A DNA stretch of 42,436 nucleotides. Origin: a virus. Of this stretch, positions 1-42,436 are shown piece after piece. Position 1 is the first letter of the stretch. Each line of letters starts with the position of its first letter. The notes below the pieces were generated by a model. It searched no databases and was not told the DNA's origin. It worked only from the letters and a program-made list of their open reading frames with translations. The position numbers and the translations under genes were made by a program. The DNA lies in IMG/VR virus record IMGVR_UViG_3300001371_000001, positions 1 to 42,436 of that record. One strand, given 5' to 3'.

Positions 1-165
1 CAGGTTCGCACCGTACAGGTCCGCACCGGACAGGCCCGCACCGGACAGGTCCGCATGGGTCAGGTCCGCACCGGACAGGTTCGCACTGGACAGGTTCGCA
101 CTGGACAGGTCCGCACCGGGCAGGTCCGCATTAGGCTTGCATAGGTCTTTATATTTCTTGTCCAT
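1..165 (-). CDS. Pentapeptide-repeat protein, N-terminal part (continues at 42436)
   Basis: This is the 5' end of a gene cut by the window edge. It starts with ATG at 163-165 behind GTGAGGTGACTA and opens [12 protein letters not shown], nearly identical to the start of the paralog at 40045-40704. About nine pentapeptide units of the A(D/N)LxG type follow, each encoded by a 15-bp DNA repeat. The frame runs open off position 1 and resumes in frame at 42436. Pentapeptide repeats fold as a right-handed quadrilateral beta-helix; some family members mimic DNA and inhibit gyrase, but nothing here shows that role. The gene continues the minus-strand operon that begins near 768. Confidence 0.85.
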
Positions 166-2965: not shown

Positions 2966-3529
2966 ATGGCGCTTACTAAATTTACTTTTATACCGAGAGA
3001 GCAGTATCCAGCAATTACCACTGGCATAGCCCAAGTGCAAGTGCCAGCGGGTACATCTATTATACGTACTTTGCCCGTGGTTAATAGTAATCGGCCTATC
3101 ACTATTACGGCTATTCCTCTTACCAAGTTGGAACATGGTGTGGTAACAGATGGGCCGTTTGTAGTGGGTGATGTTGTGGCGGGTAGTGAGTCCGGCGCAT
3201 CTGGTCAGGTGGTGGAGGTCGGTGCTGACTACCTGCTCGTGGCTGATGTATCAGGTACATTTGATGCGTCTACACCTGATACTTTAACAGGTAGCATTTC
3301 AACGGCGACTGCGAATATTACGACTAAGACAGTAGGGTCAGCTTTGGCGAGGGACACAACTTCGGCGTACACAGGTACAGAATTAAGTATTGATGGTGGT
3401 ACTGCTATTTTCTCGGATTGGGCGGTAGGGACGGTACAAGAAATTACTAAGCAGGCACTATATTCGGGTATTAGCGCTATAAAATTGACGGCGATAGATA
3501 TTGACGCTATATTTGAAATAGTGGTATAA
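2966..3529 (+). CDS. Putative virion/decoration protein, 187 aa
   Basis: A Thr/Val/Gly/Ser-rich protein with alternating beta patterns and no catalytic motif I can see. Residues about 60-115 (VGDVVAGSESGASGQVVEVG and following) resemble short beta-sandwich or carbohydrate-module-like segments found in structural phage proteins. ATG at 2966 lies two bases after the small-terminase stop, with AGGAAATAG upstream as ribosome site. It opens a block of beta-rich genes inserted between the terminase subunits; function is inferred only from composition and position. Confidence 0.5.
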   Translation: MALTKFTFIPREQYPAITTGIAQVQVPAGTSIIRTLPVVNSNRPITITAIPLTKLEHGVVTDGPFVVGDVVAGSESGASGQVVEVGADYLLVADVSGTFDASTPDTLTGSISTATANITTKTVGSALARDTTSAYTGTELSIDGGTAIFSDWAVGTVQEITKQALYSGISAIKLTAIDIDAIFEIVV

Positions 3530-3530
3530 T

Positions 3531-3914
3531 ATGGAAATATGGTCTCCATTATGGACCCTTGGTTGGGTGTCGCCTTTTACACAAGATGTTCTATATTTAG
3601 ATCTTGACACTGCATCTGATGGGACAGGTTTCTATGTTGATATAGAAGCTGATGTAGAAGAACCAGTCGTTGGAACCGTTTCTGTTACCCCAGAGAACCT
3701 TGCCTTTAAAAAAATACCACTCTTATTTTCAGACCTGTCGGATGATGGCATACTGAAGGTTGAGTGGCCTGTTGGCGTGAATACATATATAGATTTGTTT
3801 TCCCCATCGTCAACTTTTTTAGACGGCGGCAGTTCGGATGTTCCAGATCTTAGTGTTGCGGTTGGCAGTTTGGTTTCTGGTAGTGTCCAGGTTAATATTT
3901 CAATAGCGGTTTAA
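3531..3914 (+). CDS. Putative virion-associated beta protein, 127 aa
   Basis: Begins MEIWSPLWTLGWV and is rich in Asp, Val and Ser, with repeated short beta-strand-like stretches and an Ig-like pattern (EEPVVGTVSVTPENLAF, about residues 43-60). No catalytic residues or membrane segment. The start is one base after the preceding stop and has no strong ribosome site, so translation is probably coupled. Part of the inserted block; no family recognised. Confidence 0.5.
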   Translation: MEIWSPLWTLGWVSPFTQDVLYLDLDTASDGTGFYVDIEADVEEPVVGTVSVTPENLAFKKIPLLFSDLSDDGILKVEWPVGVNTYIDLFSPSSTFLDGGSSDVPDLSVAVGSLVSGSVQVNISIAV

Positions 3915-3926
3915 GGTGGTGATAAA

Positions 3927-4241
3927 ATGAAAACATTTATCGTTACTTTGATTTTATTTATAGTAGCTTCGGCATCGGCAGCCGAGCTGAAGCTCACTTG
4001 GGAGAATACCGAGACGACTTTTGATTTGACTCGCATTTATTACGGGGAGAGCCGGGACAGCATGATCCAAACAAAGGACGTTTCGTTTCCGGAAACGACG
4101 GTGATAATTGACGGGTTGGATTACGAAAAGGAATATTATTTCCAGGCTGTGCATGTTATCGGAGTATATGAAAGTGATCGATCCAATGGTGCTTTTGAAA
4201 AGGCAAGGATATCCGCGCCTAAAATCATAGGGATAGAATAG
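3927..4241 (+). CDS. Exported fibronectin type III-like protein, 104 aa
   Basis: A Sec signal peptide (MKTFIVTLILFIVASASA, cut before AELKLTW) leads to a single fibronectin type III-like domain. The LTWENT strand, the 'TTVIIDGLDYEKEYYFQAVHV' type loop-strand (about residues 58-77) and the YY aromatic are typical of FN3. The ribosome site is AAGGTGGTGATAAA. A signal peptide is unexpected in a virion protein, so the product may act in the periplasm or at the host surface. It lies in the inserted block between the terminase genes. Confidence 0.6.
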   Translation: MKTFIVTLILFIVASASAAELKLTWENTETTFDLTRIYYGESRDSMIQTKDVSFPETTVIIDGLDYEKEYYFQAVHVIGVYESDRSNGAFEKARISAPKIIGIE

Positions 4242-4253
4242 GGAGATACTAAA

Positions 4254-4547
4254 ATGGCATATACAGCTGTAGTTTCCAAGGAAAGCGTAACGAATGTCGG
4301 TGAAAAATTATTTCGGATTGATATAAAACTGGTAGTTTTGGATGGGGCCACTACTATTTTTGAAGCAACCGCGAATGCAATTTTTAATAGCGTTACAATG
4401 AATATTAATGATGTAAAAAATACTCTTCTTACCGATTTGGCAAAAAGTTGGGATACCTGGGAATCAGAGAAATTAATATACAATTCAAGCAGCCTGGATA
4501 ACATGATATCATCAATAGAAACAAGCGCAACCGAGTATATTAATTAG
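4254..4547 (+). CDS. Hypothetical protein, 97 aa
   Basis: A small protein with a beta-like N-terminal half (KLFRIDIKLVVLDGATTIFE) and a helical C-terminal half with acidic residues. No motif recognised. GGGAG lies eight bases before ATG at 4254. Phage genes of this kind near FN3 and fibre genes are often minor structural proteins, but that is inferred from the neighbourhood alone. Confidence 0.5.
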   Translation: MAYTAVVSKESVTNVGEKLFRIDIKLVVLDGATTIFEATANAIFNSVTMNINDVKNTLLTDLAKSWDTWESEKLIYNSSSLDNMISSIETSATEYIN

Positions 4548-4556
4548 GAGTCGCAA

Positions 4557-4955
4557 ATGGCAAGGACGGCAAGCAGCATCACTCAGCACGATTGGAACGA
4601 TAACACATGGACAACCGGAACTCCAACGACACCAATTAAAACCTTGAGTGGCGTTACAGAATCCAAAACCGGCTCTTTTGATGCTCGTACTTACTGGCAA
4701 CTACAGGTCACTGTTGATATCAACTATGACGCAACGCCAACGAATAGCGTAACTATCTATCTTTATGGCTCTGTTGATGGCACAAATTTTGACGATACGC
4801 CTATGGATCTTATTGCGGGAGACAAAACAACCGATCCGGAGCAATTAACTATAATGCTTTTTAGCCCTCCTGCTTATTTGCAAATTGGTTTCGTCCAGAC
4901 TGGGAGTACGGATTCTCATGATATTTCATCTGTAAAAATTATTGGATATAACTAA
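4557..4955 (+). CDS. Putative capsid-decoration-like beta protein, 132 aa
   Basis: Starts MARTASSITQHDWNDNTW; a beta-sandwich-like pattern fills the rest, with YGSVDGTNFDDTP (about 76-88) and a final HDISSVKIIGYN strand. Proteins of this appearance recur in marine and soil phages as structural or decoration proteins. GGAG precedes ATG by eight bases. Its TAA overlaps the ATG of the large repeat protein by one base, so the two are coupled. Confidence 0.5.
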   Translation: MARTASSITQHDWNDNTWTTGTPTTPIKTLSGVTESKTGSFDARTYWQLQVTVDINYDATPTNSVTIYLYGSVDGTNFDDTPMDLIAGDKTTDPEQLTIMLFSPPAYLQIGFVQTGSTDSHDISSVKIIGYN

Positions 4956-7168
4956 TGGCTTTTGTCTTTAAAGTCCAAACGAGCGGAACAAATGACACGT
5001 TCTCGCTTCCATTGCATTCGTCTGGAACATATAATTTTAATGTTGATTGGGGCGATTCCAGCAACAACGATATAGTAGCATGGGATGATGCTGCAAAAAC
5101 CCATACATATTCTGTTCAAAATGAGTATACCATAACAATTACCGGAACCTGTTATGGGTGGTATTTTGATAGTTCCGCCTCTGCACCAAAAGTTAGAGAT
5201 TTATCAGATTGGGGAAACGGCGTTTTTCGACTTGGGAATACTGGCTACTATTTTTGTGGCTGTTCGAATATGACCGTTAGTGACACAACGGGCGCCCCAG
5301 ACATAACTGGTACGACAAGTTTACATGCGGCATGGTATGACTGCTCATCATTAACCACGCTCGGTGATCTTTCGCTTTGGGATGTTAGCAATTGTGAAGC
5401 TTTTAGTTATGCATGGTATGGCTGCTCGTCATTAACCACTCTCGGTGATCTCTCAAGTTGGAACGTTAGCAATTGTACGACTTTTTATGGGACATGGTAT
5501 GGCTGCTCATTATTAACCACTCTTGGTGATCTCTCAAGTTGGAACGTTAGTAATAACGCAAGTTTTTATTATACATGGTATAACTGCTCATTATTAACCA
5601 CTCTCGGTGATCTTTCACTTTGGGACGTTAGCAAGAACGCAAGTTTTAGTTCTACATGGTATGGCTGCTCGTCATTAACCACTCTCGGTGATCTTTCAGC
5701 TTGGAACGTTAGTAATTGTACAACTTTTTATTATACATGGTATAACGCCAACAATGCTTTATCCGACGAGCACTATAGCAAAATGCTTGTCGCATGGTCG
5801 ATGCTGGCTTTGCAGACAGGTGTTCTTGCTCATTTTGGGGATGCTAAATATTTCAAAGGTGCGTCGTCTGACGCGAGGGCTCGCCTTATATCGTTAAAAT
5901 CGTGGAGTATAACCGATGGTGGGCAGTCGGTTTATAGATACCCTTCACAAATAGAATATTTCAAAAAGCCTACCGATTTAATTTATTGGCATCCGGGTAT
6001 TTATGGAGATGACGAGAGTATTGGGCTGACATCTCTGTTCAACGGTCTATTAAAAATAAAATATAGTAAAACTTCTTTCTTTGACGGTAAAACAGTTTTA
6101 AATGACAACAAAACCTCTATTTTTGATGGGTTGTTAACCGCAGAAGAAAAGACTGCCACTTTATTTGATGGCAAAACCCATATAGTTATTGTTGGCTCTA
6201 AATCAGACGTATTTGATGGCAATGCTGTTGTACGGGGCAGCACATATTCTCTCTTTGATGGGTTTCTAAAGGCAGAAAAAAAGGCTACCAACCTGTTCGA
6301 CAGTAAAACTATTGTAAAGAGTGGTGCATACTCTGTTTTTGACGGTCTTCTGTATACCGAGAAAAGAACTACCAATTTGTTTGATGGGCTTTTATATACC
6401 GAAAAAAGAGTCGCCAACCTATTTGATGGTCTTCTGTACGCCGAAAAAAGAACCACCACCCTGTTCGACGGTGAGGCTGTTGTATATATTGTTGGTTCTG
6501 AAACAAACATGCTTGATGGTAAAGGCGTTTTAAAAGACAGCACATATTCTTTGTTAGACGGCCTTTTGCGTACAGAAAAAACAGTTACCAACTTGTTCGA
6601 TGGTGAAGCATATGTGTCTTTTTCTGATTCTAAGACAGGACTGTTTGATGGTAAAACAGTTTTAAAGGATAGTCCGGTAGCCCTGTTCGACGGCAAGTCT
6701 GTTTTAAAAAGCAGCATAACCACTATCTTTGATGGAACTTTGGGGGTTAAAAAAACCACATCCGCTTTATTTGATGGCGACATTAATATAAAGAGCCTGT
6801 CGGAGTTGTTTATAGATGGGTCAGCATTAATTAAAAGCGGCGGTTCTGGATATTTTGATGGCAGAACAGTTTTAAAAAGTGCAAAAGCAGGTATGTTGGA
6901 CGGCCTTTCCAGAATATTTTCTTCGTCTACTGGCTTGCTTGATGGAACCCTGTTTGTTACAGAGGGTTCCGGAGAAGATATCCTTGATGGCAAGTTCTAT
7001 ATAGTAAGAGTGCGTCCGAATAAATTAACATACCAACAATTAAAAGATTTGCTGGAGGGGTTAAGATTCATAGATCACACACCAAATTCTTCAAGCATAA
7101 AAGTAAGCGTTAAAGACAGCCGTGGGAAAAACAGCAATATAACTACTGTAACAATAGAACCACTATAA
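4955..7168 (+). CDS. Giant mosaic repeat protein: PKD-like, BspA-type 27-aa repeats, then 23 'FDG' repeats
   Basis: A 737-aa protein in three parts. Residues 1-75 resemble a PKD/BspA N-terminal domain (VDWGDSS, THTYSVQNEYTITITG). Residues about 120-290 are 27-aa repeats of the DUF285/BspA surface-protein type (LGDLSxWDVSN then F, W Y/N, CSSLT), encoded by 81-bp DNA repeats. Residues about 360-675 hold 23 copies of a unit of about 14 residues centred on (L/I/V)(F/L)DG followed by charged and beta residues. BspA-like proteins bind host surfaces or matrix; the FDG array is unknown to me. It probably forms a fibre or surface appendage. There is no signal peptide or membrane anchor. Confidence 0.75.
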   Translation: MAFVFKVQTSGTNDTFSLPLHSSGTYNFNVDWGDSSNNDIVAWDDAAKTHTYSVQNEYTITITGTCYGWYFDSSASAPKVRDLSDWGNGVFRLGNTGYYFCGCSNMTVSDTTGAPDITGTTSLHAAWYDCSSLTTLGDLSLWDVSNCEAFSYAWYGCSSLTTLGDLSSWNVSNCTTFYGTWYGCSLLTTLGDLSSWNVSNNASFYYTWYNCSLLTTLGDLSLWDVSKNASFSSTWYGCSSLTTLGDLSAWNVSNCTTFYYTWYNANNALSDEHYSKMLVAWSMLALQTGVLAHFGDAKYFKGASSDARARLISLKSWSITDGGQSVYRYPSQIEYFKKPTDLIYWHPGIYGDDESIGLTSLFNGLLKIKYSKTSFFDGKTVLNDNKTSIFDGLLTAEEKTATLFDGKTHIVIVGSKSDVFDGNAVVRGSTYSLFDGFLKAEKKATNLFDSKTIVKSGAYSVFDGLLYTEKRTTNLFDGLLYTEKRVANLFDGLLYAEKRTTTLFDGEAVVYIVGSETNMLDGKGVLKDSTYSLLDGLLRTEKTVTNLFDGEAYVSFSDSKTGLFDGKTVLKDSPVALFDGKSVLKSSITTIFDGTLGVKKTTSALFDGDINIKSLSELFIDGSALIKSGGSGYFDGRTVLKSAKAGMLDGLSRIFSSSTGLLDGTLFVTEGSGEDILDGKFYIVRVRPNKLTYQQLKDLLEGLRFIDHTPNSSSIKVSVKDSRGKNSNITTVTIEPL
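5361..5760 (+). repeat. 81-bp coding repeats (BspA-type units)
   Basis: Five units of 81 bp, highly similar at DNA level (for example TCGGTGATCT recurs every 81 bases), encode the 27-aa surface repeats. Their similarity points to recent expansion by slippage or recombination. Confidence 0.8.
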
Positions 7169-7186
7169 TTCATGGAGACTTAAAAA

Positions 7187-7762
7187 ATGGCAGAACCAAC
7201 GACGAGATTCAGGCTTATCCCTAACAACACCGCCACCACTGCTGTAGACACAGCGGGAGAAAGGCTTGCTTCGATTTCAGGTCAATCCATAGTGTCAACT
7301 GGTGGTGGCAATGAGGCTGATTTTGGGACCATTGATATTTCTGGTGGAGCAGCAAATTCAGCAGTTCTTACACTTCTGTGGGATGTGACGGCAGACGGTG
7401 GGAATACAACCGTTGATACATTCAAGTTCTGGTTAAGCTCCAACGGCTTTGATCAGGCGGGAAGCGTTATAAAAATGCAACCGCTTTCAGGTGCAGACCA
7501 AGGTTCACCAAGCAACACTGAAAATTATGTAGCAGATGCCGTGGTAGGCTCTTACACATGGGCTACAGCGCCAGAATCAGAGCCATCTGCGAACATGTAC
7601 CCCTCCGATGAAGGGTCTTCAATGGCTCTTTCTACCACATCAGATGACGTAATCATGTGGGCTATGTATGCTGCTATAGCGGCAAGTGAAACAACCGGAA
7701 CATACTCCGGAACCACATCTGGATACGAATTGCAATTCAGTTTTAAATACTCTTATAGTTGA
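7187..7762 (+). CDS. Putative structural protein, 191 aa
   Basis: A Thr/Ser/Gly/Ala-rich beta protein starting MAEPTTRFRLIPNN and ending in LQFSFKYSYS. The pattern (VLTLLWDVTADGG, FKFWLSS) resembles phage virion beta-sandwich proteins. GGAG lies eight bases before the ATG. No catalytic residues seen. It closes the beta-rich part of the inserted block. Confidence 0.5.
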   Translation: MAEPTTRFRLIPNNTATTAVDTAGERLASISGQSIVSTGGGNEADFGTIDISGGAANSAVLTLLWDVTADGGNTTVDTFKFWLSSNGFDQAGSVIKMQPLSGADQGSPSNTENYVADAVVGSYTWATAPESEPSANMYPSDEGSSMALSTTSDDVIMWAMYAAIAASETTGTYSGTTSGYELQFSFKYSYS

Positions 7763-7766
7763 TAAA

Positions 7767-8210
7767 ATGGTGTCGCAAATGGATAAATTGCATTTAGATT
7801 CGGAATACAGAGATAGGTACCAAGAATATATAATGGCTGATGGGAGGGAATTTGATAGCAGAATTGTGAATTGGAGAAGCTTGCAATGGGAAAAAGTTAT
7901 AGCGATAAAAACATTTGTAAAGGATAAAATCTATATTACCCATTGCAAACACAATAATTTCAAGTTTTTTGTTGTATATAGATGCGGCGGTCAAAAAATA
8001 GTTGGGAACCGTCCTAAGAAAATAAAAGAATGGTCTGTCGGATGGTCGGATGGTGAGAATGCGTTTATGACTGACATTGATTTTAAAACAGGAGAAATAT
8101 TAAGACAATCCATTGTTCCTGTGAAGTCAATAGTATCTCATATACATCCAAGAGTTATGTCAAAATCTTCAGTTTCTTCTATTTCTACATGGGGCGGTAT
8201 ATATCATTAA
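7767..8210 (+). CDS. Hypothetical protein, 147 aa
   Basis: Starts MVSQMDKLHL at 7767; a longer frame exists upstream but would overlap the previous gene by 77 bases, so the first ATG after its stop was chosen. A second ATG at 7779 is also possible. The protein is basic, with aromatic strand-like segments (FKFFVVYRCGG, EWSVGWSDGENAF). No motif recognised and no strong ribosome site. It ends 15 bases before the large terminase. Confidence 0.5.
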   Translation: MVSQMDKLHLDSEYRDRYQEYIMADGREFDSRIVNWRSLQWEKVIAIKTFVKDKIYITHCKHNNFKFFVVYRCGGQKIVGNRPKKIKEWSVGWSDGENAFMTDIDFKTGEILRQSIVPVKSIVSHIHPRVMSKSSVSSISTWGGIYH

Positions 8211-39621: not shown

Positions 39622-40048
39622 GGCTGTTATCCTTCATATTAGGCTTAGTATTAGACCTAAGCCATTCCGCTTGTGCATCAGCCGCAGCAGCCCCCGCAGT
39701 AGCCCACGCAGCATCCCACGCAGCAGCCCCCGCAGCAGCAGCCCTCGCAGCAGCCAACTCATCTACTGAAGTTTGGCCGTCCAACCACTTGCGCTTGGCG
39801 TCAAGAGCTTCGATGGATCTCTTATCGGTCATCAAGTACTTGCACGAATTTGCACACCAAAGGGCGAATTCGTGTAATTCCCGGTCCGAAAGGATGCCAT
39901 CACGAGTAGCCGCCCAAATAATCCATTCAGACCTTGCCTTGTTCCAAGCATCCTGTAGGTTATTACAGTTCTTGATTGCCCATCCAATACCATCTTCACA
40001 AGCATTGTGATGTTCTAAAAACTGTACAAGCTTTTGTTTGTCATTCAT
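39611..40048 (-). CDS. Ala-rich helical protein, 145 aa
   Basis: Residues 1-95 are a helical domain ([33 protein letters not shown]). Residues 98-130 are an Ala/Trp-rich run with [11 protein letters not shown] and similar repeats, seen in many phage and bacterial proteins of unclear function. A few such proteins are annotated as immunity-like, which I cannot support here. GGGAGGTCAGAAA precedes ATG, and the start overlaps the pentapeptide stop (ATGA). Confidence 0.65.
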
Positions 40049-40704
40049 TTTCTGACCTCCCTGAAAGAATATCCCCCATTATTTATCTTACGTATTAGTT
40101 GTACACACCCACAACGAAACTTGCCATTAGTATTATAAGGCACAACTACAGAAGGCAGATGTTTATATGGTATAAGGCATTCCCAGATATCAGAGTTAGA
40201 TGTATAGACTTCTACCCATTCCAGAGTAGCAACATTTATACCACATGCGCAATTCGACGTAGGCAGAGGGTTGACCACTTCTGTGATAACGCCACCCGGC
40301 TTAATTTGGTCTTTCCATGATTCAGGCATTCTGTAACGAGCCTCAAAGGTTTTGTAGCAGATTAATCCTTTATCGTCATAAGTAAAGTTATTGTTTAGCC
40401 ATTTAACAGGATCGAGTAGCCCCTTAACACTGGACAGGTTCACATTGGACAGGTCCACATCGGACAGGTCCGCACCGTACAGGTTCGCACCGTACAGGTT
40501 CGCACCGTACAGGTTCACATTGGACAGGTCCACACCGGACAGGTCCGCATAGGACAGGTTCACATTGGACAGGTCCGCACCGTACAGGTTCGCACCGTAC
40601 AGGTCCGCACCGGACAGGTCCGCACTGGACAGGTCCGCACCGGACAGGTTCGCACCGGACAGGTCCGCATTAGGCTTGCATAGGTCTTTATATTTGTCAT
40701 CCAT
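40045..40704 (-). CDS. Pentapeptide-repeat protein, complete paralog, 219 aa
   Basis: [12 protein letters not shown], then 16 pentapeptides of A(D/N/V)(L)xx type (residues 13-92), then a conserved C-terminal domain: [38 protein letters not shown] and [14 protein letters not shown], with six Cys/Asn-Gly motifs. The pentapeptides fold as a quadrilateral beta-helix; the C-terminal domain is shared with the split paralog at 41939 to 165 and is a known phage module of unknown role. ATG at 40704 follows GGGAGGAATATT, and the upstream extension was rejected. First gene of the early operon. Confidence 0.85.
40434..40672. repeat. 15-bp coding repeats of the pentapeptide gene
   Basis: About sixteen tandem CAGGTxCxCAyxGxA-type units of 15 bp encode the pentapeptides. 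Near-identical units in the second gene (42285-42436 and 1-135) make the two arrays prone to recombination and assembly collapse. Confidence 0.85.
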
Positions 40705-40728
40705 AATATTCCTCCCAGAAAAATGTAA

Positions 40729-40764
40729 AGGGTCACACCGCTTTTTGAAAACCAAAAGTTACTC
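40729..40764. promoter_or_regulatory. Second copy of the bipartite motif
   Basis: AGGGTCACAC (40729-40738), 15 bases, AAAAGTTACTC (40754-40764), the same halves and gap as at 2327-2362. Here it lies in the 5' leader of the early operon (transcribed leftward), 25-60 bases before the first start codon. Confidence 0.55.
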
Positions 40765-41938: not shown

Positions 41939-42436
41939 TTACCTCACTTTCTCAATTAGTTGTACATATCCACAACGAAACTTACCATCAGTATTATAGG
42001 GCACAACTACAGAAGGCAGATGTTTATATGGTATGAGGCATTTCCAGATACTACGAGTGGTATTAGATCGTACCCATGCTATTGTGGCTACATTAACACC
42101 ACACCCACAATCTGAAGTAGGCAGAGGATTAACCACTTCTGTGATAATGCCGCCCGGCTTAATTTGGCCTTCCCATGATTCGGGCGTTCTGTAATGAACA
42201 TTAAAGGCCTTATAACAGACTAATCCTTTATCGTTATAAGTAAAGTTATGGTTTAGCCATTTAACAGGGTCAAGTAACCCCTCAGCACCAGACAGGTTCG
42301 CATCGGTCAGGTTCGCATGGGTCAGGTCCGCACCGTACAGGTCCGCACGGGTCAGGTCCGCACCGGACAGGTCCGCACCGGACAGGTCCGCACGGGTCAG
42401 GTTCGCATGGGTCAGGTCCGCACCGGACAGGTTCGC
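41939..42436 (-). CDS. Pentapeptide-repeat protein, C-terminal part (continues at 165)
   Basis: The 3' part of the gene whose start is at 1-165. It holds about ten pentapeptides (A(D/N)L with TH, TR, SG and YG endings), then the conserved C-terminal domain: [38 protein letters not shown] and [14 protein letters not shown], and ends QLIEKVR. Joined end to end it gives 220 residues. If the shared nine bases CAGGTTCGC at both edges are collapsed it gives 217 and a perfect 15-bp period; the paralog has 219. Confidence 0.85.

What the first reader, a model, noticed from the sequence alone, without database searches (positions are those of the whole stretch)
4955..7168. Mosaic fibre: BspA-type repeats fused to 23 copies of a new 'FDG' repeat
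The C-terminal half is a tandem array of units of about 14 residues with (L/I/V)(F/L)DG, which I cannot assign to a known repeat family. Asp-Gly turns at a fixed period suggest a beta-solenoid or Ca-binding roll-like rod. The fusion with surface-protein repeats typical of bacteria, and 81-bp DNA repeats, suggest fast evolution of a host-contact protein.
Basis: partly seen in the sequence, partly recalled or inferred. Interest (0 to 1): 0.7.

Follow-up and report, generated by a model that had tools for sequence, protein, structure and literature searches.

The report
Swappable-head phage fibre gene cassette
A bacterial virus carries a surface-protein-like binding head on a rod of 23 short repeats, and the rod with its two neighbour genes is shared by about 17 otherwise unrelated uncultured viruses that each put a different head on it, which points to an undescribed, mobile host-attachment module.

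Summary
ORF 4955-7168 (737 aa) has a PKD-like start, a BspA/PARCEL (DUF285) head encoded by 81-bp repeats, and 23 units of about 14 aa (consensus L-(L/F)-D-G-K-x-x-(I/V)-K-x-x-x-T-(D/N)) at residues 361-690. The repeat is not in Pfam, NCBIfam or the PDB, and PHROGs gives only weak hits without function. It is not unique: a profile built only from other viruses' arrays finds the window's array (215 bits; 0 of 500 shuffles). B is 69-81% identical in the 13 aligned to the window. Capsid and terminase are not shared, apart from one weak terminase match in ten records tested. Heads differ (LamG, SPRY, beta-helix, kelch-like, DUF285) while array, B and C stay. Closely related anchors carry different heads, and one relative replaces the array with a Ser/Glu/Pro linker. 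Best reading: a mobile adhesin cassette with an N-terminal binding head, an FDG stalk and a C-terminal anchor. Virion location, fold and ligand are inferred; AlphaFold gave only low-confidence beta models.

The parts
4955..7168 (+). Gene A: head + FDG array + C-terminal cap, 737 aa
4955..5209 (+). PKD-like N-terminal domain typical of BspA-type proteins (residues about 1-85)
   Evidence: weak: NF058578 E 2e-4 on residues 10-65; otherwise inference from sequence
5318..5824 (+). DUF285/BspA/PARCEL repeat head, 27-aa units coded by 81-bp DNA repeats (5331-5743)
   Evidence: Pfam PF03382, TIGR02167, tandem repeats
6035..7024 (+). FDG array: 23 units of 14 (16, 15) aa, residues 361-690
   Evidence: (profile from other viruses, 7 stretches, residues 361-684)
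7025..7168 (+). C-terminal cap, 47 aa, candidate virion anchor (helix and two strands in a low-confidence model)
7187..7762 (+). Gene B, 191 aa, 'MAEPTTRFR...FKYSYS': no Pfam, PHROG or PDB relative; 69-81% identical in the cassettes aligned to the window
7779..8210 (+). Gene C, about 143 aa, '(M)xxLHLDSEYRxRWxE...': start ATG inside the listed ORF 7686-8210; no known family
2966..8210 (+). Block between the terS-like gene (2428-2964) and terL (start about 8225) that holds A-B-C and five small genes; terS and terL lie adjacent or 0.6 kb apart in the nearest relatives
   Evidence: L164, L165

Best explanation
Gene A is a modular adhesin of the phage particle: an N-terminal ligand-binding head (here a DUF285/BspA repeat domain), a rod of FDG units acting as a length-variable beta-rich stalk, and a short C-terminal part that anchors it. 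Genes B and C are its fixed partners, probably an adaptor or base (B, highly conserved) and a small assembly or accessory protein (C). The three-gene cassette moves between unrelated tailed phages, and heads are exchanged on the stalk. Shown by sequence: the repeat family, the cassette, its spread across phages with unrelated core genes, head exchange, and the array's replaceability by a linker. Inferred: virion location (tail more likely than capsid), fold, and the roles of B and C.
For: Profile from other viruses' arrays hits residues 361-684. All ORFs of the window were compared with 15 cassette loci: only A from residue 336-358 on (28-34% identity, never the DUF285 head), B (69-81%) and C (36-55%) match; one portal hit at 21%. 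Coat is absent from 10 of 10 cassette phage records and terL is found in 1 of 10 at 34%. Every B locus from the B search has an FDG-type gene nearby and, unless cut off, C; a search by C alone returns largely the same set plus more B-C-array clusters. Heads: LamG, SPRY, DUF5123 beta-helix, DUF2341+LamG, kelch-like, DUF285. L247 and L252 share 71% identical C-terminal parts but no detectable head match; two cassettes in one 137-kb contig have similar arrays but beta-helix versus LamG heads. L273 keeps a homologous C-terminal part (26%), B and C, but has a SESPSESPS linker in place of the array. The cassette lies among structural genes.
Against: No virion proteomics. No phage record in INPHARED has B or C, so nothing is experimentally anchored. 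The cassette sits at varying places (after tape measure, after connectors, between terS and terL), so tail versus head is open. The window's C-terminal cap has no relatives here. Its upstream neighbour genes have no assigned function.
Confidence: 0.62

Rival explanations
1. A-B-C is a capsid (head) fibre or decoration module that binds host glycans or other surfaces to concentrate phages, not the tail's receptor-binding device.
For: In L043/L257 the cassette precedes the tail genes, upstream of the tape measure; in the window it sits next to terL; LamG, SPRY and kelch-like heads suit broad weak binding.
Against: In L059/L251 and L254/L255 it lies in the tail region after a tape-measure protein; L254/L255 carry the 14-residue units in a large tail-region protein.
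Confidence: 0.2
2. A is not a virion protein but a lysogeny or infection-stage surface protein (moron type) changing the infected cell.
For: DUF285/PARCEL proteins are usually bacterial surface proteins (PMC2996958).
Against: No obvious signal peptide at the start of A (sequence); it lies inside structural gene runs; no integrase was identified among the genes searched.
Confidence: 0.08
3. The array is a calcium-binding RTX-like roll.
For: Regular Asp-Gly turns.
Against: No GGxGxD; period 14 instead of 9; no RTX model among Pfam matches at E up to 10.
Confidence: 0.04
4. Similar arrays arose repeatedly from simple repeats and are not homologous.
For: Other DG-containing periodic repeats exist in phage fibres: LFDGDYNSLTNKPT, VSGSVLRTLDGTG and heptad LDGKVxA.
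Against: True members share B and C and the 14-position consensus; a 15-residue penultimate unit recurs in the window, L129, L109/L059 and L043; the other classes mostly score less per profile stretch.
Confidence: 0.06

Closest known systems
BspA / DUF285 / PARCEL surface repeats (PF03382, TIGR02167)
   Same: The N-terminal head of A is a member by profile score; also reported in phage vB_VhaM_pir03 (PMC7765460) and matched in named phages.
   Different: Only the head; no dyad-symmetric DNA repeat found here; fused to an array not described with it.
Modular phage receptor-binding proteins, e.g. Klebsiella phage RBPs (PMC8262889)
   Same: Exchangeable specificity module on a conserved structural module.
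   Different: Polarity reversed: those have an N-terminal anchor and C-terminal specificity module; here the variable head is N-terminal. The partner genes B and C are new.
Phage fibre linker repeats LFDGDYNSLTNKPT and VSGSVLRTLDGTG
   Same: About 14-residue period with an LDG or FDG motif in large phage proteins.
   Different: Different consensus, no K-x-x-I strand, found without genes B and C in the stretches viewed.
Beta-structured viral fibre shafts (triple beta-spiral, triple-stranded beta-helix such as T4 gp5, PMC4576200)
   Same: Short beta repeats forming a stiff shaft (analogy only).
   Different: No significant sequence match in the PDB; fold of the FDG array unknown.

Membership tests
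BspA/DUF285/PARCEL repeat protein | Profile match above curated cutoff | tested here: met
   PF03382 55.9 bits (cutoff 25); TIGR02167 40.2 bits (cutoff 30)
BspA/DUF285/PARCEL repeat protein | DNA repeat with dyad symmetry (PARCEL, PMC2996958) | tested here: not met
   No inverted repeat of 12 nt or more in 5300-5780; filed as DUF285/BspA-type, not as a palindromic PARCEL
RTX Ca-binding roll | Nonapeptide GGxGxDxxx repeats | tested here: not met
   No GGxGxD in the protein; period 14
FDG repeat family (defined here) | Match to a profile built without the window's sequence | tested here: met
   E 4.6e-65, 7 stretches
FDG cassette (defined here) | Genes B and C beside the array gene | tested here: met
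   Window 7187-7762 and 7779-8210
Phage receptor-binding protein / tail fibre | Present in virions and needed for adsorption | not testable with these tools
   No proteomics or cultured host
Phage receptor-binding protein / tail fibre | Variable binding module on a conserved structural module | tested here: met
Beta-solenoid | Confident solenoid model or structural match | tested here: inconclusive
   pLDDT 51/60, pTM 0.35/0.57; best Foldseek E 0.088

The most novel reading that the evidence does not exclude
An undescribed, self-contained host-attachment device: genes A-B-C form a portable adaptor system in which a conserved base (B), an accessory protein (C) and a repeat stalk with interchangeable N-terminal heads can be plugged into phages of different capsid and tail types, podoviruses and tape-measure phages alike.
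Probability: 0.4. Interest if true: 0.8.

Novelty: new variant of a known kind. Interest (0 to 1): 0.6.

Why it matters
Exchange of host-binding modules between phages is known mainly as domain swaps between related fibres. Here a whole gene cassette, with two conserved proteins of no known family, is found in phages that share almost nothing else, with heads of at least five unrelated families. If B is the universal base, it would be a natural adaptor for placing binding heads on unrelated phage particles and a marker for finding adhesins in uncultured phages. The FDG repeat would also be a new stalk type open to direct structural study.

Tried and rejected
RTX roll: no motif. Coiled coil: heptad LDGKVxA repeats in bacterial genomes match the DNA pattern but are a different thing; none of the 32 pattern hits in 84,980 species, as far as they could be read, is a true FDG array (four had a stop within the matched stretch; exact pattern only, variants could be missed). 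Known repeat family: Pfam at E up to 10, NCBIfam, PHROGs and PDB gave nothing convincing; phrog_19744 (38 aa, unknown function) scores E 2.6e-4 on one unit only. LFDGDYNSLTNKPT and VSGSVLRTLDGTG arrays were set apart as other classes. Hits H37, H64 and H65 in phage records are coiled-coil-like, not FDG. Two AlphaFold jobs gave low confidence; Foldseek of the better one gave nothing significant. Staggered alignments A3 and A4 were gappy and dropped. Host not found: no tRNA, no hit in phage or plasmid collections; the genome search does not draw relatives for a virus record. Paper search for LDGK with tail fibre and tandem repeat gave nothing relevant in the ten listed.

Full report
The reported ORF is real. 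It spans 4955-7168, 737 aa. Its head matches DUF285 and the PARCEL repeat model and is coded by 81-bp repeats. From residue 361 to about 690 there are 23 units, mostly 14 aa with three of 16 and one of 15. The [LIVFMY]DG motif occurs 21 times against a shuffle mean of 1.3, and the clear autocorrelation peaks are at 14, 28 and 42-44.

The genome is a P22/Sf6-like podovirus: terminase, portal, scaffold, coat (46% to a Pseudoalteromonas phage, 44% to Sf6), Ad3 and Hc3 connectors, plus a replication module.

The array is not in Pfam, NCBIfam or the PDB. A scan of viral contigs for three LDG/FDG motifs 42 nt apart and for LDGK versions fetched arrays of several kinds. One kind has the same 14-residue consensus. 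A profile built only from those viruses matches the window's array in seven stretches over residues 361-684, 215 bits in all, with none of 500 shuffles among the matches listed. Position-wise, D3 is 96% and G4 98% conserved in 144 units of other viruses; positions 6 and 8 are mostly hydrophobic and K5 is common. Length variants are mostly +2 at the turn after the K-x-x-I strand (thirteen 16-mers, seven 15-mers, 162 14-mers), and the penultimate unit is a 15-mer in the window, L129, L109/L059 and L043. A scan of one genome per bacterial and archaeal species with the LDGK pattern gave 32 hits; those that could be read were heptad or other repeats, not FDG.

Reading the neighbours of the arrays gave the main result. 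The array gene is accompanied by gene B, 191-194 aa, and gene C, about 130-150 aa. In the window these are 7187-7762 and 7779-8210. Order is A-B-C in most (window, L248, L251, L256, L257, L259) and B-C-A in others (L247, L250, L252, L253). A search seeded by B alone returned 16 loci, every one with an FDG-type gene and, where the contig is long enough, C. A search seeded by C alone returned largely the same set plus B-C-array clusters L272, L275 and L278, a B-C pair with a different stalk (L273/L274), C with a W/F-H-(G/S)-K 14-residue array but no B (L277), and C without B or array (L276). After removing near-duplicates, B occurs in 17 contigs besides the window; 16 of them have a recognisable 14-residue array, some with LDFK, LDLK or LDYK in place of LDGK. 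B and C have no significant Pfam, PHROG or PDB relative, and neither is found in 50,697 phage records; B is also absent from 72,556 plasmids.

The cassette moves independently of the rest of the phage. Of all window ORFs, only A from about residue 336-358 on, B and C have relatives in the 15 B-seeded loci, apart from one portal hit at 21%. In ten whole records with the cassette, the window's coat protein is found in none and its terminase in one at 34%. The carriers include phages with tape-measure proteins of several PHROGs and podovirus-like portals. In the window the cassette lies in a 5.2-kb block between a terS-like gene and terL; in L165 the two genes adjoin and in L164 they lie 0.6 kb apart, which suggests insertion.

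Heads vary while the array stays: DUF285 (window), LamG (L130/L256, L059/L251, L278), DUF2341 with LamG (L124/L252), SPRY (L024/L250), DUF5123 beta-helix (L025/L248), kelch-like (L253). L247 and L252 have 71% identical C-terminal parts after the array but no detectable head match. L273 has a homologous C-terminal part (26%), B and C, but a SESPSESPS linker with a single LLDG unit instead of the array. The two cassettes of one 137-kb contig have similar arrays and tails but different heads. The simplest reading is head - stalk - anchor, with the anchor at the C-terminus. This is inference; it is opposite to the usual N-terminal anchor of phage receptor-binding proteins (PMC8262889).

The fold is open. 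AF2 on the window's array gave pLDDT 51, pTM 0.35; on a 12-unit relative, pLDDT 60, pTM 0.57, with one strand of about 11 residues per unit and turns where the +2 insertions sit. Foldseek against the PDB gave no hit better than E 0.088; the top hits were mostly beta-solenoids. A trimeric shaft could not be tested.

Noticed in passing
window 1-130, 42285-42436, 40045-40755 (-): Both contig ends lie in 15-bp repeats; joining them keeps a minus-strand frame open that codes for a second pentapeptide-repeat protein (A(D/N)LSG), a paralogue of 40045-40755. This suggests the genome is circular or permuted and the contig complete or nearly so.
   Followed up: partly
window 3927-4241: Small fn3-like protein with a signal-peptide-like start; similar-looking small secreted proteins lie near the cassette in L064 (4023-4427), L249 (11049-11402), L254 (10470-10799) and L059.
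   Followed up: no
L248, L251 (IMGVR_UViG_3300025000_000063, 137 kb): One viral contig holds two copies of the cassette about 65 kb apart, each next to duplicated tail genes; it may hold two prophages or a duplicated tail locus.
   Followed up: partly
L254 3369-5543, L255 3322-5499: Four 14-residue units of a LLD(F/L)(K/R) form open a large tail-region protein, so the repeat is also fused to other structural proteins.
   Followed up: partly
L277 7411-8862: About 30 units of a related 14-residue repeat with W/F-H-(G/S)-K in place of F-D-G-K, next to gene C but without gene B.
   Followed up: no
L127 1721-3028: A phage protein mixes FDG units with repeats of the type RVTHFYSEVL / RVTQQYAEVA; no gene B or C seen in its 6.8 kb.
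   Followed up: no
L108 (ORF with ADLDGSHxIxxAVx): Another 14-residue LDG array of different consensus, not analysed further.
   Followed up: no
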